Positions 8,128 through 48,647 of a stretch of DNA of 64,000 nt are shown one piece after another. Where the stretch lies: assembly GCA_964036045.1 (NCBI GenBank), contig OZ038384.1, forward strand, positions 44,579,704 through 44,643,703. Reading direction: 5' to 3'. The DNA is from Eutreptiella sp. 'Long Island Sound 2002' (lineage: Eukaryota > Euglenozoa > Euglenophyceae > Eutreptiales > Eutreptiaceae). Below the pieces are notes generated by a model, which ran no database searches, was not told where the DNA came from, and was given only the letters and a program-made list of their open reading frames with translations. The translations under genes were made by a program, and so were the position numbers. Each line of letters starts with the position of its first letter. The first letter of the stretch is position 1.

Positions 8128-8130
8128 GAA

Positions 8131-29207: not shown

Positions 29208-29320
29208 TGGTGCCGTTTGCGCGATGCACGTGATACACGCTGTCTCTTGCACTGTCCCTGGCGGCCTCCTCGTTTGTTCTGCGCGCTCCGGACGTTCCGC
29301 GTGCTGTCTCCGGATTCGGC
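29208..29320 (+). other. Intron-like remnant cut at the LINE B boundary
   Basis: Begins CACAAG|GTGTGG and carries ACTGTCCCTGGCGG and CTCCGGACGTTCC, as in the neighbouring introns, but runs straight into the (TA)n end of LINE B at 29321 without an acceptor. Ends GTCTCCGGATTCGGC (29306-29320), whose reverse complement is at 47131-47145. Confidence 0.45.
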
Positions 29321-29420: not shown

Positions 29421-31660
29421 CACTTATCATGCCGTCTACTGGAGTTACCGGGCATCTCGCGCCGACAGGTGGTTCCTGCCTCGCTCGATCCCGTGGGTCC
29501 CAGGGCTGCCTGAGGTGGCCCACAGCATGACGGAGGACCCAGCGGACCGGGGATACCGGTCAACCAGGCTTTGGGGGCAGTGGCAACTGCAAAGCGTTAG
29601 CATTAGCAACGGCGACGGACGCTGGCCCGTTTGTTCGCCGGGGGTAAGGGGCAAGGCAAAGCAGCGCAGCAGCATCGCAACAAGCAGAAAGCAAGGGCAT
29701 CTCTGTCCGTCGCAAAGCGGCAACCAAGGAACAAAGCAGCACGCATGCGGCGAAGCGAGAGCTGACCCTCCGTCGTTCGCGTACCCCCGCCACCGTGGAG
29801 ACATCCATCACTCATGACCCCATGGAATCCATTGCCGTCTGCGTCCTCGAGACTGCCCACCACCCCTGACTCCTCGTATCCCTCTGCCAGCACGCAATAG
29901 CCCGTATGTGCATAGCCAGGATTTCTGGGAGGCTCCAGCCTAGCCTGGCCCTCAGCTTTCATCGCCCCCATGTCTCCACAATGTACGCCACCGTCCCACC
30001 GCACCAGTCCCCTAGTATAGTACAGAAACACGGTATCAATTCCACGTCCCCGTGGCCCTGTGCTGCCCCCACACCCCAGATATATACCATGCTGGCACCC
30101 CATGTCAGGGGCCAGCGCCCAATCTGCTTCGAGGTAACCACTTGCCCACATATAATATATCTTGACTGTCTACAGGGGGGGACGCCGGCCGCTACGCGAC
30201 GGGAGTGGCGCAACCCGTGTATATCGCTGGCTGGGATTCGGGCTGGTGGGTGCCGTAGCTTGGTTATCGACCCCCTGTAGGGGTACCCACCAGAGGCTCG
30301 CCCCGGGCTGTGGTAACCAGGTGCACCTCATCTGGCCCACATACAATGCCCTGGCGCCTACCCTTGACCCTTACCTGCACTGATTGGCCAGCTTCCGTGG
30401 TTGCGCCTCTTCCGCCACAGCAGCGGCCAGGCCGCAGGTTCGGCCCCCACCGACGACGTGGCGAGCCTACTTATAGCATTGGCCCGCGCGTCACCCCCCG
30501 GACCACTCAGCATGCCGCTCCTCTGCCCTCCTCGCCTCTAGCCGACCGGACTGGCGCCCCCCAGGGGTAAGCCGTTACAGTGGTGAGGCGACTGCATACT
30601 CTTCGCTACGACGCCGCGCAGTACCGCCGTTGCCACGCCGACGCCACCTGCTAGCCGCCACGACACGCACTACCGCAACCACAAGGCCATGGTCAGAGGT
30701 TAGACTATGTACATGCCCGCAGGCACGGTCCCTCTAGTTTGTTAACGGGGCCAGGGGATGCCCCCGCGCTCCCCCTGAGTTGTTAGAGGGGTAAGGGGGA
30801 CACCCCAGTACCGCCATGCATCCCCGTGCTCCCCCACTTTACGGTTCCCCAGTACCGCCGCGTTCTCCCACCGTACGGACCCCAGTACCGCCGCGTACCC
30901 CCACCATACGGTCCCCAGTACCGCCGCGTATACCCCCACGATGCCAGTACACCGTCATCTGGAACTTCCCCGCTGCTCCCCCACTGTACGGTTCCCCAGT
31001 ACCGCCGCGTACCCCCACCGTACGGATCCCAGTGCCGCCGCGTTTACCCCCAAGACTCCAGTACGCCGCCACCTGGAACTCCACGTGCCCCCCGTGAGCG
31101 CTCCTCCCATGCTGCCACTTCTTCTCCACGACGCCCGCCATACTGTCCCCCTGACGACCCCACTGTCATATCCTTCCACGCACACATCTCCGCCCCGTCG
31201 CCGCTCCCGGGGCCTGCAGGCTGACCCCGCAACCCCGTGTAACACTCCCAGGGGGCGCCGCAACGCTGCAACCCCCAGACAACTCCGTGCACCCCCGGTG
31301 TATCCCGAGCAACCACTCCCAACACTGCCGTAGCCGGGCCGCCAGTAGAGACCCCGGTGCCATGGGAATACCCTACAGGGGTTTGGGCCTTATTACCCTG
31401 GTCGGGACGACCCATGACACCTCACTGTTGTATGCGGCGACCCGGGGCAGGCGGGTGAAGCATCCCTGTCCGACCCTCATGCACGGGGGCAGTACGGCTC
31501 ACCATCAGGCCGGCACGACCTGTCACATCGCGTTGGCCGTCATACGCCGCCTGCCAGTACCGCACAATCAGGCCGCGAAGGCACTGCTTCTCAGGCGCTA
31601 CCCCCTCCGCTGCGTCCAGCGTAGGGACGGTAGCTGGTGCACCCACAATTCCCAACCCCA
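29421..31660 (-). other. LINE B 3' untranslated region
   Basis: No recognisable domain. A 182-codon minus-strand frame at 29603-30151 has no family features. It holds the minisatellite at 30785-31090. Confidence 0.5.
30785..31090 (-). repeat. Nested minisatellite in LINE B 3' region
   Basis: A 30-36-bp unit (plus strand CCCCAGTACCGCCGCGTACC, then CCCACCGTACGGT) repeated about six times. It is organised in two larger ~155-bp blocks, each ending CATCTGGAAC/CACCTGGAAC. Confidence 0.8.
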
Positions 31661-33001
31661 TCAACCTGCACCCCCGGCCCCCACCACGCCGTCACCATCT
31701 CCTCCGCGATGCCACAACCAGAGTATCCGTGAGTCGCCCTCCAGAGCCGCCCACCACAGCATCAGGGGCAGGGCCGCAGACGGCGCTCCAGGGCACCGTA
31801 CCCCTTCCACTCGGACGCTCTTCAGGCCATCCTGGATAGCCTTCCGGGCACTTGAGGACATCTGTCCAGAGTGCCGCAGTGCCCACCTCGCCTTAGGCCA
31901 CCCCCTATCGGCGCGCTCCTTACATGTCCCGCACAGCGGGGCGGAGGCACACTGATGAACCCAAACTGACACCGTTTCCCCGCACCCGTGGCATCGCTGC
32001 GGAAGCACAGACCGCGATGGAACGCAGTTACCATCACAACACTGCGACCACAGGTCCTGCCATACATCGCAGCACGCGTCCTGGAGCCCGAGCAAAGCCC
32101 TCGCCAGCGTGCGTGCTATGGCACAACTGAGGAGGCTGCGCCTCGCTTCCTCCCACGTGGACACCGGGCGGAGTATCGGTCGCCCGTCGGGCATCACCGG
32201 CAGGCTCTCAAGCAGCCGGGGCCACCGCGCCACTTTGGGGCTGCGTGTGCCATGCGCCAGGAGCTCCCAACCGTAGTCTCGCAAGACCTCCCCAATGACG
32301 TCAACCCCGTCCTGCTCCGGGCCCCTGGCGGAAGCCAGAACCAAGCGTTGTCCTCCCGCCCGAGCCTCAATGACCGCCTCGAGGCCCAGGGTGTCAAGGG
32401 TGTGACGGGCATCGGCAGCCACGTGGTCGTCCCCCTCTGGCAGAGAGAACATGGCCTCCGTGACGTGGCCTTGCGCGTCGTCGCCCTGTACCCGTGCCAG
32501 CTGCTTGGAGCCCACTAACACTGCCATGGACCGCTGCTCCGTGACCGCTGGTACGGCTCGTCGCAGCTGCCGGTCATACAGCCACAACGTACGCACGTCA
32601 AGTACGACAGCCACCGCCAGGACTGGGAGACTGCACAGAGGTTGCTGAAGGACCGGCAGCACCTCGCGAGGCCAGCCCATGACGTTCCCCACAGCTGGAT
32701 GGTTGGCGTACACCTGGAGCCAGGGATCACTCTGGCCGTCAGGGCTTCTCACCTTGGTACCACGCACCTGGGCCCACGACTGCGCCGACACCACGCGGGA
32801 CCACTCCCTGAACGCCGTGATGTCCCGCGCCACCCAGGAACCGATCCACTGGTCGAAGGCCTGCGCCACCGCCGCCATCCAGTGAGGGAACAAGGACAGG
32901 GCCTCGTCATGCTCGACGCACGACCGCGACACCAGCAGTGCGTGCAGCGGTGCCCTCTGAAAGGTTGCTCGCAGGTCGCCGGGGAGGCCGGCAAACGGGT
33001 T
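31661..33001 (-). CDS. LINE B ORF6, downstream of an in-frame TAG
   Basis: 446 sense codons in the same frame as ORF5, from directly after the TAG at 33002-33004 to a TGA at 31661-31663. The first ATG is about 40 codons in, after coding-like residues (NPFAGLPGDLRATFQRAP). Around 330 codons downstream is CHGCGETVSVWVHQC..CGTC, a likely zinc-binding cluster. LPVLAVAVVLDVRTLWLYDR resembles the strand-to-Asp segment of C48 folds (compare ORF3 ALRLYDRG), but no Cys follows at the catalytic spot. Function unknown. Most likely the C-terminal part of the ORF5 product made by readthrough; a nonsense mutation in this copy is the alternative. Confidence 0.6.
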   Translation of the reverse strand, partial: NPFAGLPGDLRATFQRAPLHALLVSRSCVEHDEALSLFPHWMAAVAQAFDQWIGSWVARDITAFREWSRVVSAQSWAQVRGTKVRSPDGQSDPWLQVYANHPAVGNVMGWPREVLPVLQQPLCSLPVLAVAVVLDVRTLWLYDRQLRRAVPAVTEQRSMAVLVGSKQLARVQGDDAQGHVTEAMFSLPEGDDHVAADARHTLDTLGLEAVIEARAGGQRLVLASARGPEQDGVDVIGEVLRDYGWELLAHGTRSPKVARWPRLLESLPVMPDGRPILRPVSTWEEARRSLLSCAIARTLARALLGLQDACCDVWQDLWSQCCDGNCVPSRSVLPQRCHGCGETVSVWVHQCASAPLCGTCKERADRGWPKARWALRHSGQMSSSARKAIQDGLKSVRVEGVRCPGAPSAALPLMLWWAALEGDSRILWLWHRGGDGDGVVGAGGAG

Positions 33002-34777
33002 CTACGGCGGACGCTGCAGGATCCTCCCTGCCGGCGGGCAGAAGGGTGTGTCACCGCGCAGGAACGCGTATACCGCCCTCCTTCGATCTTGCATCGGCAG
33101 CTGCATGATCTGGGTGAGCCGATGGTTCCTGCGGGCATACACATCTTCCCCAATCTGGACCATGTCCTCCACAAAGAGCCTGGCCTTGGCAGGGCCCCGG
33201 GACGACGCCGCCCGCACCGCAGCGAACAGCCGCTTCAGGTCCCCGGGGACGACACCCGCCATCAGGGATTCAGTCCACCTGCAGCCGTGCTCCCTCCATG
33301 CCACGAACTCCACCGCCCTGTCCGTCAGGGGTAGCTCCGCCGTGAACTCCTCCACACGCCTGCACAGGAGCCCACCCACCTCCTCGTCCCGCGCACACAG
33401 TAGGCGCATGTGGCCAATGTCCTCCTCCGGCCCCCCACAGAAGATACAGGGGTGGGCCGGTATTGCCATACGCGTGAGCTTCTGTCTCCACCGTCGCATG
33501 ACCTGCATGGTGGACAAGCGACCGTCACGTGCCCGCAGCATATTCCTGTGCGTTGGGCCGTGATGCACAGCTCCCAGGGGCATCGACTCGCAGGCGCCAG
33601 CCAGTGGCGTGTGCGCCCTGGTGCGAGCCGCTAGCGAACGCCACTCCATCTCCCGGACTTGCTGAAGGGCTTGCATGGATGGCACACGCGGCCCGAGCTC
33701 ACCATTATCCCCCGGCACCAAGAGGATGGCGTGCTCCTTCGGCAGGACAAGATGGACTGGCGGGGCCATTGCACGGGCCGCGGCAGAGTCCGGTGCCTCG
33801 AGCGGGACCGCCGCCAAGTGCGAGCTCTGCCTCACCACCCAGTGGTGCGGCCCCCCAACTCGGCGCGGCAGCCGCCGCAGCCCCTCCACTATCCAGCTCA
33901 GTGCGTGCTGATTGACCAGATGTGATGTCGGCCCCTTGATGCCACGGTACAGGGCCTCCTGCGCCTTGCGGAGATGCGCTCCTATGACGGACGCATCCAC
34001 CACGTGTACCGTGCACGCTGACGGGGGCGTGTGCAACAAGTACGCCGCCGCGCCAATGATCTCTGCCTCCGGGACCGTGCCGTAGATGGCACCCGTCCAT
34101 GTGGGGATTCCGTGGCTGGCCACCGCCACGTTTGTGGCGTCGTCTCCCTGGGGCGACGCGTCAGACGATGTGACTTTAGTCGCCACCGGCACCCAGCAGT
34201 ACCGGTGGGGCTCCAGCCACGCCACGTCGGAGTGGGGGCTCTGCACCACCTTTCCCAGGGACGCCGCACCGGAGGCCGTGAGCTCCGGGGACAGGACCAC
34301 CCTCGGTCGATACACCGCATGTGGTCTCCAGGCCAGGTCACATTCGCAGACTGACTTTATGGCGTCCGGGGCGGTGGTATACTCCGCTCCCCAAACTGTT
34401 GCGGAGCAGGAAGGCTGGTATACCACCACAGACCCCTGCTCCACTGCGCCGCCATCACGCAACGACGTGACGGCGACGTGCGGATCGTGCGGCACGTTGG
34501 ACATCCGCACCACTTCCGGGACCGAGTACTCATCCGGATCCGGGATTGGGCCTGCCGGCAGCAGAAGAACAATTGCCCATTCGCTGCACTTGTGCACCGC
34601 CGCGCACGCCCTGGAGAACGCTGGCCGCCCGTGCACAACCCACAGTGGTGGCGGGCTTATGCCGCCCCCGGCGTGAGGAGTGAGCAGGGGGACGGACGCC
34701 GGATCGTCTTGCTGTTGGTAGCCCTCAAAGACGTCCCCCAACAGAAACAGGAGGGCGGCTAGCGGGACGAACGGCAT
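33002..34777 (-). CDS. LINE B ORF5, RNase H-like domain and CCHC knuckle
   Basis: 591 residues, ATG at 34775-34777 overlapping the end of ORF4 by 19 bases in the -1 frame, ending TAG at 33002-33004. At roughly residues 205-340, DDATNVAVAS, PEAEIIGAAAYLL, VHVVDASVIG and SSHLAAVPLEAPDSAAARAM follow the RNase H order Asp, Glu, Asp, (His).., Asp. Near residue 440, CIFCGGPEEDIGHMRLLC is C-x2-C-x8-H-x4-C, the knuckle found C-terminal to RT in many LINEs and also in LINE A. RNase H would remove the RNA template during second-strand synthesis. Expression could be by termination-reinitiation at the overlap or by -1 frameshifting. Sure of the CCHC; the RNase H call is moderate. Confidence 0.7.
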   Translation of the reverse strand: MPFVPLAALLFLLGDVFEGYQQQDDPASVPLLTPHAGGGISPPPLWVVHGRPAFSRACAAVHKCSEWAIVLLLPAGPIPDPDEYSVPEVVRMSNVPHDPHVAVTSLRDGGAVEQGSVVVYQPSCSATVWGAEYTTAPDAIKSVCECDLAWRPHAVYRPRVVLSPELTASGAASLGKVVQSPHSDVAWLEPHRYCWVPVATKVTSSDASPQGDDATNVAVASHGIPTWTGAIYGTVPEAEIIGAAAYLLHTPPSACTVHVVDASVIGAHLRKAQEALYRGIKGPTSHLVNQHALSWIVEGLRRLPRRVGGPHHWVVRQSSHLAAVPLEAPDSAAARAMAPPVHLVLPKEHAILLVPGDNGELGPRVPSMQALQQVREMEWRSLAARTRAHTPLAGACESMPLGAVHHGPTHRNMLRARDGRLSTMQVMRRWRQKLTRMAIPAHPCIFCGGPEEDIGHMRLLCARDEEVGGLLCRRVEEFTAELPLTDRAVEFVAWREHGCRWTESLMAGVVPGDLKRLFAAVRAASSRGPAKARLFVEDMVQIGEDVYARRNHRLTQIMQLPMQDRRRAVYAFLRGDTPFCPPAGRILQRPP

Positions 34778-37700
34778 GGACAGCCCCGGGTTGGCCGCGT
34801 CCCATCCTTCCTCCCTGTATCGCCCACCACATACACGTTCCCCGCAGCGGACTGTCTATTGCGTTTGCTGGCCTTCTTTCGGCGCACCGGGTGTATTAGC
34901 CGGTGAGTCAACGGACCGGGCAGCTGCGGCCGGAAGACGTCGCGAAGCCCCGTGAGCCACACGTGGTCCAGCTGGTGGGGCCCTACCCCCGCGTGCGGAA
35001 GGTGCAGGTGGTCCTCATGGCACTCCTGAAGCTGTACCGCCCAGTGCCCAGGCGCAGGGCAGGGGAGCCGCGCATGCAGGAGGTCATTTGCGGGATCAGT
35101 CAGGGACTGTACTGTCGCATCTGTGCGGGGCCCCGAGAGAATGCAGATGTCCCTACCCTTGAAGGTATAGGATTGGGACACCCACTTCCGCCCCGCCCAC
35201 TGCACTTGCGGCAGATGGGCGTGTACACACGAGTATACCGACGATGGCATGAGAAGCCCCACGCGCAACGTCCCCATCGCCCTGAGTACCCTGTCCACCC
35301 ACGTATTGCCAGCGTGTGTGGCGAATGACGCAGAGGGCACCATGAACTGCCCGCACACTCCGTACTGCACGTGCATGTCTCGGAGCATGGCCCGCAGCTC
35401 ATCACGGACTGTCATCGACCTGTGGTGGGTGAGCTGAGCCATGGTCGCCACGACGGAGTCGCGGCATATAACCTGGACATCCGCCAACCGTAGCCCATGA
35501 CCTGACCGCACCGCCACGTTGGACAGGTCCTTGGGCAGCTTCTCGAACTGCGGGGCCGCAGCCTTGATGGCAGTATTCAGCTTGATTACCGCCTCCGCCG
35601 TGTCGGACAGGTAGGGCGCCGCGTACCGCACGATGCCTCCAACCACAGCCGCCATCACCTCATGAGGCACCGACGCCGGCCCCAGCGTGTTCTTGCACCA
35701 GCCCAGCAGGGCTTCACACCGGAGTACATGTTTCTCCTTCATGATCGCCATCCCCCTGGGATCGAGGCGCAGGCCCAAGTATGGTACCCTGCCCTTGGCA
35801 CGTAAGCATACCCATGGGGCCGCCGCGTCCCCCGGGTTCAGGTATACCATAATCGAATGGATGCGAGCAGTATTGGCATAGGCGCATTTGCCCACGTTGA
35901 GGGACATGCCCATGTCAGTGAGATACCGCGCTATCGCCGCCGCATACTCCAGGAATTGCGGCAGGGAGTGCGCTATCAACAGGAGGTCATCACAGTACGC
36001 CTGTACCAGGGGTGGCACCGCATGGCGAGCATCTCCCCGCGCCTTACAGGCGAGGCTCCGCAGGAGAGGCTCCAAAAGGAGGAGGTAGAGCACAGCGCTC
36101 TCCGCACTGCCCTGCCGCAGGCCCCTATGGAGCCGTATGCTCGGCGTCGGACCGTGCGCGGTGACGATGCGCACCAGAGACCCGCAGCTGAGGGTGTGGA
36201 AGAGCCTGATGAGCTCCTCCGGGACACCCATGTGGCGCAAGAGGAGCGCCAGCGCTCCGTGCGGCGCTGTGTCAACAGCCTTCGACACATCGAAGGCCAG
36301 GACGTGGTTTTCCTCCAGCCCACGCTGCAGCCTGCGCTGGGCCAGGAACACCGGGGCAGCCGCCGTGGAGCCCGGCATGGCTCCGAACTGCCAGTCCGCG
36401 GCCAGTCCCTTGCGTGCCAGAACAGCTGTGAACCTCCGCATGAGGGGAGTCATGAGCATTCGCATGTCTTGCTGCCCCAGCGCTATCGGCCTGTACTCGT
36501 CCAGGTTGCCCGTGGCTGTGCCCTTGGGCATCAGCCAGATAATGGCCTCGTGCCAGGACTCCGGGACGTCCGCACCCCGCAGGATTGCCCTGTACGCATG
36601 CACCAGGAGCCCCTGCACCGGTTCAGGCAGCTCTGCTATGAGGGCAGCCGTGACCCGGTTGGACCCCGGAGCTTTGTCGTCCGCCACGGCCTTCCTCACG
36701 GCGTCTTTAAGGTCCTGCATGGTGTAGTCCTGTACCGACCTCCATTCCTCCGGCACCCCTTTGGGAATGTGGGCCCGGACCAGCCGCTCGAAGGCCGGCA
36801 GGTTCACTGGCCGCTTGGCGTACAGCGCCTCCCAATACCTCTGGACCTCGCCAATGACGTCCGAGGCCTCCAAGAGCACCTTATCCGACTCGCGGACGCG
36901 TACGGACCATAGGCCTGACGGGGCATAGTTCACCACGTTGATGGCCCCCCGTATCGCCGTCCATCGGAGCTGCAGATCCGGTACCCTGCCCCGCCAGTAG
37001 TCCTTGATGGACCGGCGCCTGTTGCTCCTGAGGACATCCCGCAGCTCCTCCACGCGTGTCACCAGCTGGTGGAGCTGTTGGTCCAATGCGGCACGCAGGT
37101 CCTCTACCGAGGCGGGGGACAGGTCGGGGTCCAGTCGCCGGAGGTGCTGTAGCAGGGCAGTCGCTTCCTTGGAGTGGAGTCCGGCCGCCGCCGCGTCCCG
37201 TTGCCACAGCTGATGGGCACGCCAGGCCAGGGCCTGCTGATCCGAGAGGACCTGGTCTAGCGACGCCTCCGCTTCCGCCTGCCCGTATGGGTACTGCGGG
37301 TCCACGCCGGAAGGCATGCGCACTCCCGTGACCCTGGACACGTCATCACGGAAGGCGTAGAGCAGGTCAAAGACCGCTTGCACCTCCGACGTGCCCATGG
37401 TGGCAGTGTCCTGGTCCGACGAGAGCCACGCCTGCAGCCGCAGATCCCCGCAGGCCTTCTGCAGTACTGCCGCCGCCGCCTCACGAACCCCCGGGGAGTC
37501 CGGGCGTATGGCATGCAGCCTGCCTTGGGCGTGCGAGTAGGCCATCCTGGTGACCCTCTCCTTGCCGGCCACCGCCAGCGGGATGTCCAGGACCACAGGG
37601 CCATGATCCGACCCCAGTGACGCAGGAGACCGCCCCGGCGCTAAGTGAGGGCGCTCACGCGCCGCCCACGGGACCAGAGGCGAGTTTAGAAGGAAGGAGT

Positions 37701-38364
37701 CCAGTCGGTGCCCTGCCCTCGTGGGCCTCCTGTCCTCCTCCCGTTCCGGGCCTGCCCTGTGGAAACCACACTGTTCCCACAGGGCTTGGAACCTCCTCGT
37801 GGTAGGGTGCCACGGGGACTGCAGCCACACGTTGAAGTCCCCTCCGAGGAGCACGGCCCTGGTGCCACCCGCGCTCTTGGCCGCCGCGTACATGGCCACG
37901 TCAGCCCAGAAGGACGCCTTAGACGCCCAGGAGTCGCCGCCGCTACCCGGGCCGTGGACGTTGATGACCGTGAGGGTGCCACCTGCGGTCACCACATCTA
38001 GGGCCATGGCTTTGCCCGGCACGATGTCCACGATGTCTCGAACTTCCTCCGCGGCGAACACGTCCGCCCGAAGGGCAATCAAGAGCCCGCCGCGCACCGC
38101 CGCCGCCGACGCCGCCTGGGCATCCACCCCTGGGTATGCATGATACCCATGGTGACGCCACTGGTTCTCGGAGTGCACCACACCTCGTGGGTCCTGCAGG
38201 CCAGTCTCCTGGAATAGGCCCAGGATGGCACCCTCGGCCTTCATGATGCCCGCCGCCACCGCTTCACCGTCGAGCATACCTGGGGCCACTGGTACACCGT
38301 CCCCCCGCATTGAGCCCTGGACGTTCCAGGACACCGCCGCTCGGGTGTCGGAGGCTGGGCCCCT
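34759..38364 (-). CDS. LINE B ORF4, APE endonuclease and reverse transcriptase
   Basis: 1201 sense codons from the TGA at 38365-38367 to TAG at 34759-34761. Endonuclease motifs in order: SWNVQG, FQETGL, INVHGPG, LLGGDFNVW, HRLDSFLLN, SDHGPVV (about residues 10-260), all catalytic positions present. Reverse transcriptase about 580-900: WLMPKG..YRPIAL, motif A FDVSKAVDTAPHG (near 680), motif B LRQGSAESAVLYLLL, motif C YCDDLLL (near 780). This is the enzyme for target-primed reverse transcription: it nicks DNA and copies the element RNA. The first ATG lies after SWNVQG, so an AUG start would lose the first metal-site Asn. The ORF is therefore probably entered by reading through the TGA from ORF3. 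Confidence 0.9.
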   Translation of the reverse strand, partial: RGPASDTRAAVSWNVQGSMRGDGVPVAPGMLDGEAVAAGIMKAEGAILGLFQETGLQDPRGVVHSENQWRHHGYHAYPGVDAQAASAAAVRGGLLIALRADVFAAEEVRDIVDIVPGKAMALDVVTAGGTLTVINVHGPGSGGDSWASKASFWADVAMYAAAKSAGGTRAVLLGGDFNVWLQSPWHPTTRRFQALWEQCGFHRAGPEREEDRRPTRAGHRLDSFLLNSPLVPWAARERPHLAPGRSPASLGSDHGPVVLDIPLAVAGKERVTRMAYSHAQGRLHAIRPDSPGVREAAAAVLQKACGDLRLQAWLSSDQDTATMGTSEVQAVFDLLYAFRDDVSRVTGVRMPSGVDPQYPYGQAEAEASLDQVLSDQQALAWRAHQLWQRDAAAAGLHSKEATALLQHLRRLDPDLSPASVEDLRAALDQQLHQLVTRVEELRDVLRSNRRRSIKDYWRGRVPDLQLRWTAIRGAINVVNYAPSGLWSVRVRESDKVLLEASDVIGEVQRYWEALYAKRPVNLPAFERLVRAHIPKGVPEEWRSVQDYTMQDLKDAVRKAVADDKAPGSNRVTAALIAELPEPVQGLLVHAYRAILRGADVPESWHEAIIWLMPKGTATGNLDEYRPIALGQQDMRMLMTPLMRRFTAVLARKGLAADWQFGAMPGSTAAAPVFLAQRRLQRGLEENHVLAFDVSKAVDTAPHGALALLLRHMGVPEELIRLFHTLSCGSLVRIVTAHGPTPSIRLHRGLRQGSAESAVLYLLLLEPLLRSLACKARGDARHAVPPLVQAYCDDLLLIAHSLPQFLEYAAAIARYLTDMGMSLNVGKCAYANTARIHSIMVYLNPGDAAAPWVCLRAKGRVPYLGLRLDPRGMAIMKEKHVLRCEALLGWCKNTLGPASVPHEVMAAVVGGIVRYAAPYLSDTAEAVIKLNTAIKAAAPQFEKLPKDLSNVAVRSGHGLRLADVQVICRDSVVATMAQLTHHRSMTVRDELRAMLRDMHVQYGVCGQFMVPSASFATHAGNTWVDRVLRAMGTLRVGLLMPSSVYSCVHAHLPQVQWAGRKWVSQSYTFKGRDICILSGPRTDATVQSLTDPANDLLHARLPCPAPGHWAVQLQECHEDHLHLPHAGVGPHQLDHVWLTGLRDVFRPQLPGPLTHRLIHPVRRKKASKRNRQSAAGNVYVVGDTGRKDGTRPTRGCPCRSSR

Positions 38365-39987
38365 TCATGGCTGCACGTGTGGACCGGGGCCCCCCGCCGG
38401 ATCCGGATCACTGGACGGAGAGGGGCCACCAGCAGGTTCAGGGGGACCACCCGCACCCGGCGCGGGCGGCTGGCGAGGTGGCCCCTGACCCCGTGGGCCT
38501 CCGCCCGAGGCGGTCGTCGCCTGCTGAGACCCGGCAGATGTGGCGGGTTCCCCCTCTGCCTGTCCGCTGCATGTACTTGCCGCCGTACTCCCCGTAGAAG
38601 ACACTGCCCCACGCCGTGCTGCAGATCCAATCGCTCCAGATCGTGCCGCCGACGGCGACGCCCCACGCCCCGCCGCAGGGCGGGCACCCGTGGGCAGCGT
38701 GAGCGCTCTGGACCCCGCCTGGGCCGACGCGAAAGGCCCCGCCTGGCCCCCCGGCATAACGCCAGTCAGCATGGCCAGCGCCTGGTCCCGTTGCGCCGGA
38801 TCAGTCGCATGGTCCCGCTGGATGTGGTCCAGCAGGTCCTTGGGGTGGAGGTGGGTGGGCCGGCAGTGCTTGCCAGCTTTCCAAGTGCAGTGACCAGCCC
38901 CCTCCAGCCGAGACCAGGGGCAGACATTGATCGCCTTTGTCCCACGCTGATCCGTGGCCAAGTCACCACCGAAGTGCTGCAGCACGTACCGAATGTTGGC
39001 ATAGGCGCCATACTGAGGCGGGGGGCTCCTCTTGGGCGGCGGCTTGGGCGCCGCTTTCGGGGCCTGCCCCGCCGCCGCGGCCGGGGTCGCCGCAGGCCGT
39101 ACTGGTGGCACGCTTGGTGGTTGCGGCAGGTGCAGCATTCCCCCCACGGGAAACTGCTCCTCCACCCAGCGGCGCCACGCGTCGGCGAACTTCTCCCGGT
39201 CGCCCTCGACCTTCCACCTGGACGTGGAGAACGCCCGGAGCCACGGCCCCATGTTCTCCGCCATAACCAGGCAGAGGGCATCTCCTCCGCTCTGCCGGCG
39301 GAAGCGTGTCGCGGCCGCGCCTGCCACGGTCTCTTGGAGGTACAGCGCGTCGCCCCCGTCGCCACTCAGTGCGCTAAGGTGCAGGGCCTCCAGGTCGGCG
39401 GGGCGGACCGTGAGCACCGTGCCCTGCCCGCGATCGTACAGGCGCAGCGCCGAGGAGTGGGGCTCCAACGCCGCCACAACCCAGTACCACGCCCGCGACG
39501 CGCTATGCAGCAGTGCTAGCGAGGCTGCCGGCCTGTTGCTGGAGGACTGCGCCGCCGGGGCCCTGGGGAGGGCCGCCGCGTGACCCTGCAGCGCCCTGCA
39601 TATGCCAGCTGCATGCTCAGCCTGCCACATGTTGCCCGGGGCTACGGGCCAGACGTCCTGCCCCTGGATCACCGGCGGCCGCGTGACCTCCACGAAGACC
39701 GCCGGCGCTGGCGGGATGTCCTCGGCCGTGCACCTGTGCGCCCTGCGCACCGGCCCCAGCCCACTGAGGCACTCCTGGAACACCCGGTAGCAGGCCGGGC
39801 CCCTGGACTGCTGCCTCCTGAGCCGGCTCGCGGTGACCACGACCCACTCCAGTCCCCCTGTTTCCACCCGAACGCAGGCCCAATACTCCGCCCCCTCCAA
39901 CACCACCAGCCGCCCCATATCCGCCATGCCCACCGTATGGGTGGAAGGCACGCTCTCCACCCTCAGCCACCGCTTGGCGCTCTCTTC
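38365..39987 (-). CDS. LINE B ORF3, degenerate C48-like protein with Cys/His finger
   Basis: 540 sense codons from the TAG at 39988 to the TGA at 38365, in the frame of ORFs 1, 2 and 4. Residues ~155-235 look like an Ulp1/C48 fold: AWYWVVAALEPHSSALRLYDRG parallels HWxLxxI....hxLYDS, and RQSGGDALCLVMAENM parallels QxNxxDCGxFxxxxAE, but with Tyr for the catalytic His and Ala for the catalytic Cys. If right, it is an inactive protease. Near residues 335-385, VCPWSRLEGAGHC..HCRPTHLHPKDLLDHIQRDH is a Cys/His cluster that may bind zinc and nucleic acid. The C-terminus is Pro/Gly/Ala-rich. First in-frame ATG about 20 codons after the TAG. Confidence 0.65.
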   Translation of the reverse strand, partial: EESAKRWLRVESVPSTHTVGMADMGRLVVLEGAEYWACVRVETGGLEWVVVTASRLRRQQSRGPACYRVFQECLSGLGPVRRAHRCTAEDIPPAPAVFVEVTRPPVIQGQDVWPVAPGNMWQAEHAAGICRALQGHAAALPRAPAAQSSSNRPAASLALLHSASRAWYWVVAALEPHSSALRLYDRGQGTVLTVRPADLEALHLSALSGDGGDALYLQETVAGAAATRFRRQSGGDALCLVMAENMGPWLRAFSTSRWKVEGDREKFADAWRRWVEEQFPVGGMLHLPQPPSVPPVRPAATPAAAAGQAPKAAPKPPPKRSPPPQYGAYANIRYVLQHFGGDLATDQRGTKAINVCPWSRLEGAGHCTWKAGKHCRPTHLHPKDLLDHIQRDHATDPAQRDQALAMLTGVMPGGQAGPFASAQAGSRALTLPTGARPAAGRGASPSAARSGAIGSAARRGAVSSTGSTAASTCSGQAEGEPATSAGSQQATTASGGGPRGQGPPRQPPAPGAGGPPEPAGGPSPSSDPDPAGGPGPHVQP

Positions 39988-41613
39988 CTACGGCTGGGGG
40001 GCATGCATCCGCTGCTGCTGCATCGCGTCCTGCACGTGCTGCAGGGACACCGTCGCCAGCATGGACATCCCCCCGTCCGCCGCCGCCGCCATACACAGCA
40101 GGGCATGTTGCATGCGCGCCCCGGGCAGCCCCACGTTGTGCGGGACGTTCGCCAGGTCCAAGGGCGTGCGAGGCGCCGGCAGGGCCTCCAACACCGCTGC
40201 AGGCAGCTCCCCCAGGGACGGCAGACGCGCGATGGGCCCCATGTCCCTGTTGAGGACCACCGCCGCCACCCACCGCCTGTCCAGCGCGGACAGGAGGGTG
40301 CCCGGCCTCGGCACCCTGAGGAGGGTACCGACGGCGGACATGAGGGCGCACACGCCACAGTCCTTGGTGTTGCCGGCCGGCTGTTGCACCTGTGCCGCCC
40401 GGGCTTCCGCCATCAGACGCTCCGCACCCGGCCATCCCGCCCTCTGGCCCCTGGGTGCCATGCGCATCGTCCGGACCGCCATGTCCCACGTGTGCGGCCA
40501 TTGGGGCGGAGCCCCCGACACCACAGGCCGGCCCAGTGGGTCCACGGCCAACCGCATGTCAGGGGCAACGAGGTGGTGGGCCGTCCAGTGCCGCATGTCC
40601 GGCGTCTCCAACCGGTCGAGGTACACCGCCTCTGAGCCCCCCAGCTCGACGTACCTCGCAATGAGGAGGGCAGCCGGGGTTTGGTCGTGCCGCTGGCCTT
40701 CCCACCCCTCCCTCGGGAGCATCATGGCGTGGGGGGCCAGGCACTGCACCACGTCGGCTGCCAGCGCGACCACGTCGTTGCTGAGCTCCACCCCATGGTC
40801 CGCGGCCACCAGGAAGTGGTGCCTGGGCTTGGAGTACACGCGCTCCAGGGCGCCCCGCAACTCAGCTGGCGGGGGAGAGGCGTCTCCGCAGCCCCGCAGC
40901 CAGGGGAGTGCGCCCGGGAGATGCCGCCCCGCTCCTCCTGACCAAACGGCGGCCCTAAGGACCGGCAGGTCCCGCCAGACAGCCATTGCGACCTGATCGC
41001 GCCAGGGGTGTGGCTTGTTGGCACCCCACTGGAGGACGGCCACCACAGCATGCGTGGTCAGGGGCTCTGCCGTGAGCTGCAACGCCGTCCCCCCGTCGGT
41101 CTCGATCACCGTGCCCCTTGGGGCAGTGAAGACGTGGCCATCGGCCCCACGGACCGCCACCCATCCCCACAAGACCGCCACGGTCTCCCAGCTGGGGTGG
41201 TTGCTTCTCCTGGGCAGGACCACCACCGGTGGGCACGGGCCGTTGGCGGCCCACACGCGCCATTCCACTCCCACCACACGCTCGTGACCAGGGGGCCGGT
41301 ACACCTGGGGCCACGCGTCTGGGAGCTGGCGATGGACAGCGGTCCACACATCAGCCCCGCTAGCCCGCGTGAACTGAAGACCCCCGAGGATGTCCCCGTC
41401 CACAGGGCTGGGGAGGCGGGCGGTGCGAACTTCCAGCCCCTGACTCAGGCGAAGCCCTGGCCCCTCTCGGTCTCCCAGCAGCGAGACCTCCGGGTCTGTG
41501 GCCGCAAGACGAGCCGCCACCGTGGGGAGATGCAGGGAGACAGTCCACGGCTGGACTGAGACGGGCTCGCGCGGGAGGTCAGGGCAGGCCGCCACAGCAC
41601 TGCCATCCCTCGC
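39988..41613 (-). CDS. LINE B ORF2, Ulp1/C48-like cysteine protease
   Basis: 541 sense codons between the TAG at 41614 and the TAG at 39988. C48 proteases (Ulp1/SENP family) cleave after Gly-Gly in ubiquitin-like proteins, and virus and transposon relatives process polyproteins. The catalytic order His, Asp, Gln, Cys is visible: RHWTAHHLVAPDMRLAVDPL (His near 337, Asp near 350), then VQQPAGNTKDCGVCALMSAV (Gln near 403, Cys near 412). The first in-frame ATG is about 200 codons from the TAG, leaving a long coding-like region with no AUG, which argues for translation from ORF1 by readthrough. It could mature the element's own polyprotein or act on host SUMO-like proteins; both are inference. Confidence 0.75.
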   Translation of the reverse strand, partial: ARDGSAVAACPDLPREPVSVQPWTVSLHLPTVAARLAATDPEVSLLGDREGPGLRLSQGLEVRTARLPSPVDGDILGGLQFTRASGADVWTAVHRQLPDAWPQVYRPPGHERVVGVEWRVWAANGPCPPVVVLPRRSNHPSWETVAVLWGWVAVRGADGHVFTAPRGTVIETDGGTALQLTAEPLTTHAVVAVLQWGANKPHPWRDQVAMAVWRDLPVLRAAVWSGGAGRHLPGALPWLRGCGDASPPPAELRGALERVYSKPRHHFLVAADHGVELSNDVVALAADVVQCLAPHAMMLPREGWEGQRHDQTPAALLIARYVELGGSEAVYLDRLETPDMRHWTAHHLVAPDMRLAVDPLGRPVVSGAPPQWPHTWDMAVRTMRMAPRGQRAGWPGAERLMAEARAAQVQQPAGNTKDCGVCALMSAVGTLLRVPRPGTLLSALDRRWVAAVVLNRDMGPIARLPSLGELPAAVLEALPAPRTPLDLANVPHNVGLPGARMQHALLCMAAAADGGMSMLATVSLQHVQDAMQQQRMHAPQP

Positions 41614-44600
41614 CTAGCTGAGCGCCCTGTCCCACCACTGCGCCCACGCACCCGGCGCTGCCGGCAACGACCAGGACAGGTACGTCACGACCGCCTTAGC
41701 CTGCCACTCGCGAGGGTCCATGCCGGCGGGGTGTGTGTGCCGCGTGCACACCCATCCCAGGTTGGCCTCCTGGACGGTGACCATGTCCCTCCACGGGACC
41801 ACCGGGAACGGAGTGAGCAGGGCCGCCATGCCACATGGCAACGCCACCGCCCACTCGGTCAGGCCCCCACTCTCCACCGCATACCCCACCGCCGGGAGCC
41901 CTCCCACTTGCGCCTTTACCACCGCCTCCTGCAGCAACGTTCCGTGGCCCCGGCCGTGGCCCTGGCTGCGGTCCAGGCTGAGAGCCCCCACACGGGCCAT
42001 GGCCTGGAGGATCAGGAGCAACTCCTGGGGTACTCCCTGCGGCACCGGCGGCTCGGGGTGGGCGAACCGGCAGGCATCTGCCCGCATGCACCACCCCTTG
42101 GCCCAGTGCCTGCAGGTTTCCACCTCCCCCGTCTTCGGCCCAGCCTTATCCGCCAGCCCCGGCTCCCGGGGACTCACCTCACGCGCCTCCTTCGCCCCCA
42201 CGATCACCAGCTCCTCGTCCTGCTCCCCGGCACCCTGTGCCTCTTCACCCTTGAACTCCGGCTCCTCGTCCTGCTCCATGGCGACTTGCGCATCCTCACC
42301 CCTCCTGCGTTGGTCCTCCTCCTCCAGTGCCTCCGTCGTCGGCGGCGGGCCCGCAGCACCCGTGATCCTCGCCAGGGCCGCCGCCACAATGGCCTGCACG
42401 TCCACCTCCTCCCCGGCCACCTCCGGCTGATCCTGCTGCTGCTCCTCCCCCGTGGGTTGCTCTTGCCCCACCCCGTCACCGCCACGGCCTGCTTCCCCGT
42501 CGCCCCCCACCGGGATTGCGTGTTCGGACCCCTGGGGGGCGGCGCTCCCGTCGAGGCGCGTGCCCACCACCACCAGCAGCTTGAGGTCACCGCCGCGGCT
42601 CTCAAGGCGGTAGCTGCTGGTGGTGGGGACGAGAACCGCCCCATCCCCGGTCAGCAGCAGGCGGTCCGCGTCGAACACGACCTCTGCACCCTCGGGGTGC
42701 AACGCCACCAGGAGCGCATGGGACCCCAGCGCCTGGGGTGTGAGGGGCCGCCCGGCCTGCTCGCGACGCCAAGCGTCAGCCCCACCCCGCCACAAGGCCA
42801 CGTACAGGCCTTCGTCCCGCCGCACGTCCTCCAGCCCCGCCTCGCCCAGCAGGCGCACCACGGACAGGCGCACCGACAGGGGGAGGCTTTCCTGGGGCTC
42901 GGCCGCCCGGACATCACCGGGGTGGTGACCCAGGACCGCCGCATCCCCCAGTTGGACACAGCGGACCTGGCCGTTGTCCGGGGACGTTGCCGCCAGGGCC
43001 ATCTCCCGGGCGACCTGCCCTGGGCGCTGGAGCTCATAGCGCTCCAGGGCGCTCGCCAGCATCCCTGCCTCCCGCTGCCCCGTGCCCGTGAGGCGGTGCC
43101 TGTGGGCGCCCTCGGCCGCATGGTACCTGCAGTGCCGCCGCTCACAGCTCCCCAGGGGAGGGGGCGGCACCGCAGTGGGCATGGGCCGCAGCGGCTCGTT
43201 GGCCGGGTCCTCGTCCATGCCGGCGTAGACGTCGGGCCCGGCGTCGTCCTCAAACATGAGGGCCAGCGCCGACTCGCCGGGCCCGTATGCCTCCTCGTCC
43301 TCCACTTCCTCCGCCTCCTGCTCCCCCTCCGCCCCTTCTCCAGCCGCGACCACCGCCGGCGGCGTGTCCGGCCGCGGCGGGAAGGGCGCCAGAGGCCGCT
43401 CGTCAGCGCCTCCGCCCCTTGCCGCCTCCGCCGCGTCCAGCCGTGCCCTCAGGTTGGCGGGCAGCCGGGCCCAGCTGGTGCCCGCATGGAGATCCATGCG
43501 GTACGCCAGCCCCGCCGGACACGGCACACCGGGTGCCACCTGGCGCCACTCCCGCCACTCCCACATCCAGCCCTCCGCTTCTTCCCCCTTGGCACGTCCC
43601 CCACTGGGCTCCACAACCCCGCCGCCCTCCGCCGGCGTTTGCGCCTTCGGCACACCCCGCCCCGCGCCCTGTCCCCCCGAAGAAACCGCCTCCGACGGCG
43701 TCTCCTTGGCCCCTTCCGTCCTCGGGGCGACAGCCGCGAGCGCCTGCGCTATCAGCTCGCCGGCGTCAGCCCCTTCCGGCGCGGCTCCCCCACTCCCTAC
43801 GGCTGTCCGCCGGTACTCCTCCAGGGCCTGCGTGAGCAGCTCGCTGATGTCTCGCGGGCCAGCCACTGCCGCCTCCTGCGCTGCATCCCCCGCTCGTTCC
43901 CCCGCCGTAGTCCTCCCCATGGGGGCCGCGCCCTGCATCCCACGCGACGGGGGCAGACCCCCACCCGGCACCACTGGCTCCGGGTCCGTCGGCACCACGG
44001 GCGGGGCCTCGCGCGGCACGGCTGGGTCCGGCATCTGGACCGTCCGCGGTGGTGACCCCGCCGCGGGAAACTCCGGCTGAGGCACCGCCAGGGGTGGCGC
44101 AGCCGCAGGTGCCCCCATTCCCCTCGCCTCCCCCGGGGGCACGCCATGTGCCTTCCCTTGCGACACCCCCTGCTGCTGGGCGCCCCGCCCCGGCCCAGGT
44201 GCCGGTACCGGTACCGGCACCGGCATGGTGTGCTGAGGCACCGGCCGTGAGTGCTGCTGGGGCGGGGGGCGAGGGCATTCCACATGCAGGTGCGGACGGT
44301 GACGGTGATGGTGATGGTGAGGGTGGACGGGGTGCCGTGGCACAGCCCCTCGCGACACCCCCTGCTGTTGGGCGCTCCGCCCCGGCCCAGGCACCGGTAC
44401 CGGTTCCAGCACCGGCATTGTGTGCTGAGGCGGTCGCGGGTGCTGCTGGGGTAGGGGATGTGGGTACCCCACATGCTGGTGTGGACGATGATGGTGATGG
44501 TGATGGTGAAGGTGGACGGGGTGCTGTGGCCCAGCCCCTTGCGACACCCCTTGCTGCTGTGCGCTCCGCCCCGGCTCAGGCACCGGTACCGGTTCCGGCA

Positions 44601-45510
44601 CCGGCATCGTGTGCTGAGGCGGCAGTGAGTGCTGCTGGGGCAGGGAATGCGGGTACTCCACTTGCTGGTGCGGAAGGTGATGGTGACGGTGATGGTGAAA
44701 GTGAACGAGGTGCTGTGGCACAGCCCCTTGCGACACCCCCTGCTGCTGGGCGCTCCGCCCCGGCTCAGGCACCGGTACCGGTTCCGGCACCGGCACTGTG
44801 TGCTGAGGCGGTCGTGGGTGCTGCTGGGGCAGGGGATGCGGGTACTCCACATGCTGGTGCGGATGGTGATGGTGATGGTGATGGTGTAGGTGGACGGGGT
44901 GCTGTGGCACAGCCGCCAGCTGGTGGTGATGGTGAAGATGGACGGGGGGCTGTGGCACAGCTGTCGGGTGTACGTGTTGGTGCGGGAAGTGATGCTGCAT
45001 CATGGGGAACCCGACGGGGTGATGAAGTAGGTGATGGAGATGAAGTTGGTGGTGGTGGTGAGCCCCAAAGGGCGGGATGGGCATGGGCCCGAGGCCTGGG
45101 GGCGGCGGCATCGGAAACGCACCCGGCGCCGCATACCCCGGCTGCCCCGCCGACCCCACTGGGGGGCGCCCGCGCTGCGCGTCCTCGAGCTGCCCGAGAT
45201 CTTGTAGACATCGGAGTAGTCGGTTGAGCAGGTGCACCCCGAACGGCACCGTGCCCGCTGCGAACCGCGCCTGAACGTCGGGCGCGTTGTACGGGTGGGG
45301 ATCGCGGGCCAACATCTGCCGCAAGCAGACGTCGACGAAGTGGTCCCACCCGTTGTCCCTGGCCGGACGGTCCGCGTCCACGCGCTCCTGGAACGCCGCA
45401 TACGTGTGCGGCCCGTGTCTGACGAGATCAGACACCGTGTCCACCAGGCGCCGGGCACGTCGCCGGAAGGCTGGCAACTCCGCGGGATTGGTGGGGACAG
45501 ATAGCGACAT
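41614..45510 (-). CDS. LINE B ORF1, His-rich protein with CCCH zinc finger
   Basis: 1298 residues. ATG at 45508-45510 is directly preceded by an in-frame TAA, so the start is secure; it ends TAG at 41614-41616. Residues ~1-130 form a mixed helical-looking region. About 150-430 is a His/Pro/Gln-rich part with four ~63-residue repeats. Then comes a long Ala/Glu/Pro-rich region. Near 1132-1155, CRHWAKGWCMRADACRFAH is C-x7-C-x5-C-x3-H, a CCCH finger typical of RNA binding. This is probably the RNA-binding ORF1 protein of the element. SHALLVALHPEGAEVVFDAD (near residue 930) faintly recalls the C48 His-strand-Asp segment but lacks a catalytic Cys. Confidence 0.8.
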   Translation of the reverse strand: MSLSVPTNPAELPAFRRRARRLVDTVSDLVRHGPHTYAAFQERVDADRPARDNGWDHFVDVCLRQMLARDPHPYNAPDVQARFAAGTVPFGVHLLNRLLRCLQDLGQLEDAQRGRPPVGSAGQPGYAAPGAFPMPPPPGLGPMPIPPFGAHHHHQLHLHHLLHHPVGFPMMQHHFPHQHVHPTAVPQPPVHLHHHHQLAAVPQHPVHLHHHHHHHHPHQHVEYPHPLPQQHPRPPQHTVPVPEPVPVPEPGRSAQQQGVSQGAVPQHLVHFHHHRHHHLPHQQVEYPHSLPQQHSLPPQHTMPVPEPVPVPEPGRSAQQQGVSQGAGPQHPVHLHHHHHHHRPHQHVGYPHPLPQQHPRPPQHTMPVLEPVPVPGPGRSAQQQGVSRGAVPRHPVHPHHHHHRHRPHLHVECPRPPPQQHSRPVPQHTMPVPVPVPAPGPGRGAQQQGVSQGKAHGVPPGEARGMGAPAAAPPLAVPQPEFPAAGSPPRTVQMPDPAVPREAPPVVPTDPEPVVPGGGLPPSRGMQGAAPMGRTTAGERAGDAAQEAAVAGPRDISELLTQALEEYRRTAVGSGGAAPEGADAGELIAQALAAVAPRTEGAKETPSEAVSSGGQGAGRGVPKAQTPAEGGGVVEPSGGRAKGEEAEGWMWEWREWRQVAPGVPCPAGLAYRMDLHAGTSWARLPANLRARLDAAEAARGGGADERPLAPFPPRPDTPPAVVAAGEGAEGEQEAEEVEDEEAYGPGESALALMFEDDAGPDVYAGMDEDPANEPLRPMPTAVPPPPLGSCERRHCRYHAAEGAHRHRLTGTGQREAGMLASALERYELQRPGQVAREMALAATSPDNGQVRCVQLGDAAVLGHHPGDVRAAEPQESLPLSVRLSVVRLLGEAGLEDVRRDEGLYVALWRGGADAWRREQAGRPLTPQALGSHALLVALHPEGAEVVFDADRLLLTGDGAVLVPTTSSYRLESRGGDLKLLVVVGTRLDGSAAPQGSEHAIPVGGDGEAGRGGDGVGQEQPTGEEQQQDQPEVAGEEVDVQAIVAAALARITGAAGPPPTTEALEEEDQRRRGEDAQVAMEQDEEPEFKGEEAQGAGEQDEELVIVGAKEAREVSPREPGLADKAGPKTGEVETCRHWAKGWCMRADACRFAHPEPPVPQGVPQELLLILQAMARVGALSLDRSQGHGRGHGTLLQEAVVKAQVGGLPAVGYAVESGGLTEWAVALPCGMAALLTPFPVVPWRDMVTVQEANLGWVCTRHTHPAGMDPREWQAKAVVTYLSWSLPAAPGAWAQWWDRALS
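44150..44960 (-). repeat. ~189-bp in-frame tandem repeat in ORF1
   Basis: Four copies marked by CACCGGTACCGGT-type cores near 44202, 44393, 44583 and 44771. Period divisible by three, encoding His-, Pro- and QQGVSQG-rich units. Confidence 0.8.
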
Positions 45511-47076: not shown

Positions 47077-47131
<55 letters not shown>

Positions 47132-47182
47132 CCGAATCCGGAGACATATATATCTATATATATATATATATATATATCTATA

Positions 47183-48447: not shown

Positions 48448-48647
48448 NNNNNNNNNNNNNNNNNNNNNNNNNNNNNNNNNNNNNNNNNNNNNNNNNNNNN
48501 NNNNNNNNNNNNNNNNNNNNNNNNNNNNNNNNNNNNNNNNNNNNNNNNNNNNNNNNNNNNNNNNNNNNNNNNNNNNNNNNNNNNNNNNNNNNNNNNNNNN
48601 NNNNNNNNNNNNNNNNNNNNNNNNNNNNNNNNNNNNNNNNNNNNNNN
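48448..48647. other. Assembly gap (200 N)
   Basis: Exactly 200 Ns, probably a placeholder of unknown true size. It hides the upstream exon of the piggyBac gene. Confidence 0.95.

What the first reader, a model, noticed from the sequence alone, without database searches (positions are those of the whole stretch)
31661..45510. LINE with six ORFs in two frames separated only by single stop codons: possible stop-readthrough polyprotein
Seen: ORF1, 2, 3 and 4 (45510 to 34759, minus strand) are all in one frame, interrupted only by TAG (41614-41616), TAG (39988-39990) and TGA (38365-38367). ORF5 and ORF6 share another frame split by TAG (33002-33004). Coding-like sequence continues directly after each stop. 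ORF2 has no ATG for about 200 codons, and in ORF4 the first ATG lies after SWNVQG, whose Asn is part of the endonuclease metal site, so AUG reinitiation would give damaged products. The stops fall between domains and each ORF is otherwise uninterrupted for 420-1300 codons. Inference: programmed readthrough (several leaky stops in series) gives graded expression of a polyprotein. I know of no LINE described with this layout.
Basis: partly seen in the sequence, partly recalled or inferred. Interest (0 to 1): 0.92.

Follow-up and report, generated by a model that had tools for sequence, protein, structure and literature searches.

The report
Giant LINE with conserved in-frame UGA
This is a partly decayed copy of a very large jumping gene: three of its four "leaky" stop signals look like damage to this copy alone, but the fourth is kept at the same place in many other copies and in a sister family, so the copying enzyme may be made by reading through one stop.

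Summary
ORFs of other copies, from a protein database, split the claim. Three TAGs and the ORF4/ORF5 frame change are private decay: copies covering them read sense codons at 41614 (6 of 6, all Trp), 39988 (33 of 33; 30 Trp) and 33002 (1 of 1, Trp), and 7 of 7 read in full cross ORF4/ORF5 in one frame.

The TGA at 38365-38367 is different. ORF-A ends exactly there in 23 of 40 other representatives; none of the rest reads a sense codon there in that frame. ORF-B follows in the same frame, with no ATG between TGA and the endonuclease SWN motif in this copy. In a sister family 21 ORFs end at one codon, and 9 copies read on with R, S, G or C there, as expected from UGA. Best reading: a LINE whose EN-RT protein is made by reading through one conserved UGA, as in MLV gag-pol. 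Readthrough is inferred, not shown; AUG-independent reinitiation is the main rival. No DNA of other copies could be fetched.

The parts
38365..45510 (-).
   Evidence: other copies run through both TAG sites. 'Gag-like' is by position and zinc finger, inference
41614..41616 (-). TAG, private nonsense mutation; Trp in 6 of 6 representatives aligned across it
   Evidence: a seventh, P0014, leaves the frame before it
39988..39990 (-). TAG, private nonsense mutation; sense in 33 of 33 family representatives aligned across it (30 Trp, 2 Cys, 1 Ser)
   Evidence: 45 rows: 33 counted, 9 do not reach the position, 3 are sister-family matches at 25-26% identity
38365..38367 (-). TGA, family-conserved end of ORF-A, in the same frame as ORF-B; proposed readthrough site
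   Evidence: 23 of 40 representatives end exactly here; TGA forced by back-translation in P0019 and P0035
38366..38368 (-). ATG overlapping the TGA (ATGA), but in a different frame from ORF-B; opens a 34-codon ORF only
31661..38364 (-).
38332..38334 (-). GTG of VSWNVQG, the first ATG/GTG/TTG after the TGA; six ORF-B ORFs of other copies are called from this codon
38308..38310 (-). first ATG of ORF-B, already downstream of the SWNVQG endonuclease motif
37603..38334 (-). endonuclease domain (Exo_endo_phos, residues 11-254 after the TGA)
35770..36519 (-). reverse transcriptase domain (RVT_1)
   Evidence: a profile of ORF-B proteins matches R2 and LINE-1 RT sequences in the PDB
   Evidence: tblastn switches frame here; sequence; 7 of 7 copies read in full are continuous
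33002..33004 (-). TAG, private nonsense mutation; Trp in the one representative that covers it (P0010, cluster of 3)
42052..42120 (-). CCCH zinc finger in ORF-A
   Evidence: zf_CCCH_4 E 2.1e-5, 24.9 bits against a cut-off of 29; zf-CCCH E 5.6e-4, 20.2 against 20.5
44155..44914 (-). about four 189-bp repeats encoding part of the His-rich region of ORF-A

Best explanation
The feature is a slightly decayed copy of a large non-LTR retrotransposon (LINE) with two ORFs in one frame: a gag-like ORF-A, one UGA, then ORF-B with the APE-type endonuclease and reverse transcriptase. Supported by sequence: the UGA is conserved in position and frame in this family, and a sister family keeps the same layout; in this copy no AUG lies between the UGA and the endonuclease motif; the three TAGs and the ORF4/ORF5 frame change are decay. 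Inferred: a minority of ribosomes read through the UGA and make an ORF-A/ORF-B fusion, while most terminate and make ORF-A alone, giving a gag-to-pol excess like that of gammaretroviral gag-pol. This copy itself is almost certainly dead.
For: Private stops: sense residue in 6 of 6, 33 of 33 and 1 of 1 representatives aligned across them. Random substitutions in these ORFs would give 0.040 nonsense per missense change; with about 190 amino-acid differences to the nearest copies, roughly half private (assumed), about 4 stops are expected and 3 are seen. Conserved UGA: of 40 representatives that hold the end of ORF-A, 23 (56-94% identical over the last 100 residues) end exactly there; the other 17 end elsewhere or leave the frame first, and none reads a sense codon there in that frame. 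Two copies that pass the site in another frame (P0019, P0035) force TGA at that codon. Four such copies (P0019, P0035, P0073, P0075) keep the TGA-to-SWN spacing without a gap (read by eye). Sister family: 21 ORF-A ORFs end at one codon; 9 copies read on in frame with R (2), S (4), G (2) or C (1) there and continue into LQEDTADDALWLLSWNLRNG or a near variant; R, G and C are one base from TGA but not from TAA or TAG. ORF-B start: the six ORF-B ORFs that begin before the first ATG (cluster sizes 1283, 1, 10, 1, 91, 167) all begin at the GTG of VSWNVQG; the caller does use such starts (25 of 39 anchored starts are GTG or TTG in the window), and that codon is not ATG in P0019, P0073 or P0035. In the sister family 51 ORFs begin only at a Met 35 residues past the endonuclease Asn.
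Against: No DNA of another copy was obtained, so stop identity and frame elsewhere are inferred from ORF ends and back-translation. The initial Met of the six MSWNVQG ORFs could be ATG in those copies; P0075 leaves ATG or GTG open, and in P0035 the codon before it is ATG or ACG. In 17 sister-family ORFs a start codon lies 5-6 codons after the stop, so some copies may have a usable start; the 9 in-frame bridging copies have Thr (7) or Ala (2) at the first of these positions. Both families' end positions come from ORF lists in which only the roughly 8,000 candidates sharing most words were scored. The window's context, UGA-A, is not a classic leaky one (recalled), and the 120 nt downstream folds no better than shuffles (z -0.22). 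Same frame by chance has odds of 1 in 3. In Tca2, an LTR element with an in-frame gag-pol UGA, local flanking sequence did not direct readthrough in a yeast test system (PMC2194720, passages).
Confidence: 0.55

Rival explanations
1. Termination at the conserved UGA, then AUG-independent or near-cognate reinitiation (GUG of VSWNVQG in this family, a CUG-type codon in the sister family), makes ORF-B as a separate protein, much as has been proposed for mammalian L1 ORF2.
For: The endonuclease match begins just 10 codons after the UGA, where an independent ORF2 would begin. Mammalian L1 ORF2 tolerates other sense codons at its first AUG, and unconventional initiation has been proposed for it (passages in PMC1965478; PMC5972666; PMC5009743). 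The GTG is in the window and is allowed by back-translation in P0019, P0073 and P0075.
Against: It does not explain why ORF-A and ORF-B share a frame, or why sister copies with a sense codon at the stop continue seamlessly. P0035 has neither GTG nor ATG at that codon.
Confidence: 0.25
2. The UGA is removed from part of the mRNA by cis-splicing, or ORF-B is made from a shorter trans-spliced mRNA.
For: Splicing was considered for Tca2 when readthrough failed (PMC2194720, passages). Spliced-leader addition is described for dinoflagellate mRNAs (start of abstract PMC6050394 in a search listing), if that is the host, which no call shows.
Against: No transcript data. No spliced-leader copy in the window with up to 3 mismatches. 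A shorter mRNA would still lack an AUG before the SWN motif in this copy.
Confidence: 0.1
3. One reading: four leaky stops in series give graded expression of one polyprotein.
For: All four stops are in long open frames with coding-like sequence on both sides.
Against: Three of four stops are sense codons in every retrieved representative aligned across them (6, 33 and 1), and a private frame change breaks the chain.
Confidence: 0.02
4. The UGA is an old defect spread by copies mobilised in trans by other elements, and ORF-B is not expressed from these elements.
For: Many retrieved copies are visibly decayed: 17 of 40 ORF-A ends are off frame or end elsewhere.
Against: Two families that are only 45-49% identical in the best-matching part of the endonuclease, 29-42% over alignment A3, keep the same layout. 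The largest cluster, 1283 sequences, has a representative with 1,689 open codons of ORF-B; its members were not seen one by one.
Confidence: 0.06

Closest known systems
Gammaretroviral gag-pol (MLV), in-frame UAG readthrough
   Same: gag-like ORF, one stop, pol in the same frame (PMC5009743, passages)
   Different: UGA here, not UAG; a LINE with endonuclease and RT instead of a retrovirus; no stimulatory structure found
Tca2 LTR retrotransposon of Candida albicans
   Same: gag and pol in one frame separated by UGA (PMC2194720, start of abstract and passages)
   Different: Ty1/copia-group LTR element (PMC7175516, passages); how its UGA is bypassed is unsolved
SART1-type LINEs with stop-start overlap (UAAUG)
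   Same: an ATG overlaps the ORF-A stop here too (ATGA) (SART1: passage and reference title in PMC5972666)
   Different: here the overlapping ATG is in another frame and opens only 34 codons
Mammalian L1 and Candida Zorro3
   Same: two-ORF LINEs with endonuclease and RT; mutating a conserved endonuclease Asn reduced Zorro3 retrotransposition (PMC1965478, passages)
   Different: their ORFs are separated by a spacer and ORF2 has its own ATG; ORF-A here, about 2,380 codons, is far larger than Zorro3 ORF1 (1,608 bp; PMC7175516, passage)

Membership tests
Non-LTR retrotransposon (LINE) with APE-type endonuclease | LINE-type reverse transcriptase domain | tested here: met
   RVT_1 E 1.4e-16; profile of ORF-B proteins matches R2 and LINE-1 ORF2 chains by sequence
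Non-LTR retrotransposon (LINE) with APE-type endonuclease | Exo_endo_phos endonuclease upstream of RT in the same ORF | tested here: met
   E 7.6e-9, residues 11-254 of ORF4, RT at 616-865; a fold model failed and the single sequence finds nothing in the PDB
Non-LTR retrotransposon (LINE) with APE-type endonuclease | multicopy, with 3' tail and target-site duplication | tested here: inconclusive
   multicopy met (clusters up to 1283 sequences); ends and duplication not determined, though TA tracts lie at 29.3 and 47.1-47.2 kb
In-frame stop-readthrough element (gag-stop-pol layout) | upstream and downstream ORFs in one frame with one stop conserved across copies | tested here: met
   23 of 40 representatives here end at the stop and 21 ORFs of the sister family; frame kept in the 4 frameshifted copies that pass the site collinearly; from protein ORFs, no DNA of other copies
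In-frame stop-readthrough element (gag-stop-pol layout) | no start codon for the downstream ORF before its essential residues | tested here: inconclusive
   met in the window; consistent in six other ORF-B starts; ATG not excluded in those without DNA, and 17 sister ORFs have a start just after the stop
In-frame stop-readthrough element (gag-stop-pol layout) | stimulatory 3' RNA structure or known leaky context | tested here: not met
   z -0.22 over 120 nt; window context UGA AGG
In-frame stop-readthrough element (gag-stop-pol layout) | fusion protein observed | not testable with these tools
   needs proteomics or reporters
SART1-like stop-start coupled LINE | overlapping ATG in frame with ORF2 | tested here: not met
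   ATG of ATGA is in another frame and ends after 34 codons

The most novel reading that the evidence does not exclude
A lineage of giant algal or protist LINEs keeps a single in-frame UGA between its gag-like ORF and its endonuclease-RT ORF across strongly diverged families, and makes its EN-RT protein only as a readthrough fusion: a retrovirus-like gag-stop-pol strategy in a LINE.
Probability: 0.5. Interest if true: 0.72.

Novelty: new variant of a known kind. Interest (0 to 1): 0.52.

Why it matters
How LINEs translate their second ORF is unsettled even for mammalian L1 (passages). A LINE lineage whose ORFs share a frame across one conserved UGA, with no AUG before the endonuclease motif in the copy at hand, would be a natural, testable readthrough system in a LINE. 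Its many copies would let the signal be mapped by comparison.

Tried and rejected
Four leaky stops in series: rejected, because three are private. An early idea of mine, that ORF-A really ends in another frame (as in P0007 and P0008), was dropped: those two turned out to be frameshifted, while 23 of 40 representatives end at the TGA. A stop-start overlap (ATGA) as the ORF-B start: rejected, wrong frame. A general UGA-as-sense code: not favoured, because apart from the junction and ORF-B's own terminal stop there is no in-frame TGA in 4,607 codons, against 109 TGG. AlphaFold of the endonuclease piece also failed (mean pLDDT 36), and a PDB search with that single sequence gave no match. RNA structure 3' of the UGA: nothing unusual. 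DNA of other copies: none in viral contigs (2 scans) or genome contigs (1 scan). No Rfam family at gathering thresholds and no tRNA in the window.

Corrected on checking: the count of sister-family ORFs starting at the late Met is 51; an earlier pattern count gave 53. Back-translation shows that the codon at V of VSWNVQG is not ATG in P0019, P0073 and P0035; it does not prove GTG. Neither change moved my odds.

Literature: nine searches (one search found no paper). Passages only were read in PMC5972666, PMC5009743, PMC1965478, PMC7175516, PMC2194720 and PMC6338049. What I saw described no LINE with in-frame stop readthrough between ORF1 and ORF2. Most subscription papers are not in this library, so this is not proof of absence.
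Full report
OBSERVATION. The minus-strand frame anchored at 45510 is open to 34759 except for TAG 41614-41616, TAG 39988-39990 and TGA 38365-38367. A second frame runs from 34777 to 31661 with TAG 33002-33004. GC periodicity by codon position carries on either side of the stops and switches frame near 34.7-35.0 kb; the block 38610-38311, a Pro/Gly-rich stretch that holds the TGA, has a different pattern. Pfam identifies an endonuclease (Exo_endo_phos, residues 11-254 after the TGA) and a reverse transcriptase (RVT_1) in ORF4, and a CCCH zinc finger below the curated cut-offs in ORF1. A profile of ORF-B proteins matches R2 and LINE-1 ORF2 chains of the PDB by sequence.

OTHER COPIES. Searches of the window's own assembly did not complete (ten identical requests; see Tried and rejected), and two other collections gave no relative. 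The evidence therefore comes from ORFs in the public protein database, nearly all from ENA contigs without an organism name; each id stands for a cluster at 90% identity, and each search scored only about 8,000 candidates. The gene caller behind these ORFs uses GTG and TTG starts: 25 of 39 starts that could be anchored exactly in the window coincide with GTG or TTG. An ORF's initial Met is therefore not proof of an ATG.

THREE STOPS ARE PRIVATE. With 100 residues on each side of every stop as query against all retrieved proteins: at 41614, 6 of the 7 matching proteins align across the position and all 6 read Trp (P0014 leaves the frame before it). At 39988, of 45 matching proteins 9 do not reach the position, 3 are sister-family matches at 25-26% identity and are left out, and the other 33 all read a sense residue (30 Trp, 2 Cys, 1 Ser). 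At 33002 one protein covers it (P0010, a cluster of 3) and reads Trp. No retrieved ORF ends at any of these three places. Seven copies read in full across the ORF4/ORF5 junction (P0003, P0004, P0005, P0006, P0009, P0010, P0067) are in one frame there, whereas tblastn against the window switches frame at 34.79-34.94 kb. Over ORF-A and ORF-B, random substitutions would give 0.040 nonsense per missense change. About 190 amino-acid differences separate the window from its nearest copies (122 in 1,840 columns against P0007, including that copy's frameshifted tail; 46 in 1,181 against P0003; 22 in 632 against P0010). If about half are private to the window, which is an assumption, about 4 stops are expected; 3 are seen. 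This is ordinary decay.

ONE STOP IS CONSERVED. A search centred on the TGA returned 74 proteins. Of all retrieved proteins, 40 hold the end of ORF-A of this family. In 23 of the 40 the ORF ends exactly at the window's TGA (P0036, P0038-P0054, P0056, P0057, P0059, P0062, P0066), with 56 to 94% identity over the last 100 residues. Of the other 17, P0055 ends two codons earlier, and the rest end further upstream or leave the frame (P0007, P0008, P0019, P0064, P0068, P0072, P0073, P0075, P0076, P0078, P0079, P0082, P0084, P0085, P0086, P0088). None of the 17 reads a sense codon at the TGA in the ORF-A frame; the weak match of P0064 there runs through unrelated sequence. Two copies that pass the site in another frame (P0019, P0035) force TGA at the codon by back-translation; P0073 and P0075 are compatible with it. 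In all four the peptide in the other frame is collinear with the window from the TGA to the SWN codons, so ORF-B is in frame with the TGA there too (read by eye).

NO AUG BEFORE THE ENDONUCLEASE MOTIF. In the window the stretch from the TGA to VSWNVQG has no in-frame ATG. The first ATG/GTG/TTG is the GTG of VSWNVQG, and the first ATG comes after the motif. The six other-copy ORFs that begin before the first ATG in this frame all begin exactly at that GTG (P0003, P0004, P0020, P0021, P0022, P0060; clusters of 1283, 1, 10, 1, 91 and 167 sequences). Back-translation excludes ATG at that codon in P0019, P0073 and P0035; it leaves ATG or GTG open in P0075, and in P0035 the codon before is ATG or ACG. 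An ATG overlaps the TGA (ATGA) but is in another frame and opens 34 codons only. Mutating a conserved endonuclease Asn reduced retrotransposition of Zorro3 (PMC1965478, passages); that the Asn of SWNVQG is the same residue is from motif position, not from a structural alignment.

SISTER FAMILY. Of these, 21 ORFs end at one and the same codon after MRD(S/G/T/A). Nine copies read on in frame and carry R (P0087, P0094), S (P0089, P0090, P0096, P0124), G (P0091, P0098) or C (P0092) at that codon, followed by LQEDTADDALWLLSWNLRNG or a near variant. R, G and C are one base from TGA but not from TAA or TAG; S is possible from all three. The call's 'sense' list has 17 rows: these 9, 7 that are out of frame, and one with a gap. 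51 ORFs start only at a Met 35 residues past the endonuclease Asn, and 17 start 5-6 codons after the stop. In the nine in-frame bridging copies the first of those positions is Thr (7) or Ala (2), so I read the 17 as variants, but a genuine start in some copies cannot be excluded without DNA. This family is 45-49% identical to the window's in the best-matching part of the endonuclease and 29-42% over alignment A3.

MECHANISM. Supported by sequence: a two-ORF LINE in which a UGA separates two in-frame ORFs, with the same layout in two families. Inferred: UGA readthrough produces ORF-A plus ORF-A/ORF-B fusion. Against it: the window's UGA-A context is not a classic leaky one (recalled), and the next 120 nt folds no better than shuffles. 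In the sister family the residue after the stop is Leu in 9 of 9 bridging copies, which allows a UGA-C context (inference). The main rival is AUG-independent reinitiation as discussed for mammalian L1 (passages in PMC5972666, PMC5009743 and PMC1965478). Splicing and trans-splicing are weaker rivals without data.

COMPARISON. It works most like gammaretroviral gag-pol (UAG) and resembles the Tca2 gag-UGA-pol layout, though for Tca2 local sequence did not direct readthrough in a yeast test system. It is a LINE by its domains. It is not a SART1-type stop-start element, because the overlapping ATG is out of frame. Nine literature searches showed no LINE with this layout (list in Tried and rejected); the library lacks most subscription papers.

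VERDICT. The dramatic claim (four leaky stops) is wrong. A narrower and better supported one (one conserved in-frame UGA between gag-like and EN-RT ORFs) survives. I rate it a new variant of a known kind.

Noticed in passing
window 29305-29320 and 47131-47146: An exact 16-bp inverted repeat, each copy beside a long TA microsatellite, brackets the element (about 17.8 kb apart); it may mark the insertion borders or a palindromic TA-rich target.
   Followed up: partly
window 49115-50395, + strand: 427-codon ORF with a transposase domain of the piggyBac type (DDE_Tnp_1_7, E 6.5e-18; 'piggyBac' is recalled).
   Followed up: no
window 5113-8128: Tandem array of a 48-bp unit, about 63 copies at 85% match.
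   Followed up: no
window 23952-24982 and 50762-51822: Arrays of units of about 197-198 bp far apart in the window whose consensus sequences look related by eye.
   Followed up: no
If real, the fusion could be self-processed.
   Followed up: partly
window 30831-31080: 33-bp and 114-bp tandem repeats just 3' of ORF-B, perhaps part of the element's 3' untranslated region.
   Followed up: no
window 48448-48647: 200-base run of N (assembly gap) next to a TA microsatellite.
   Followed up: no
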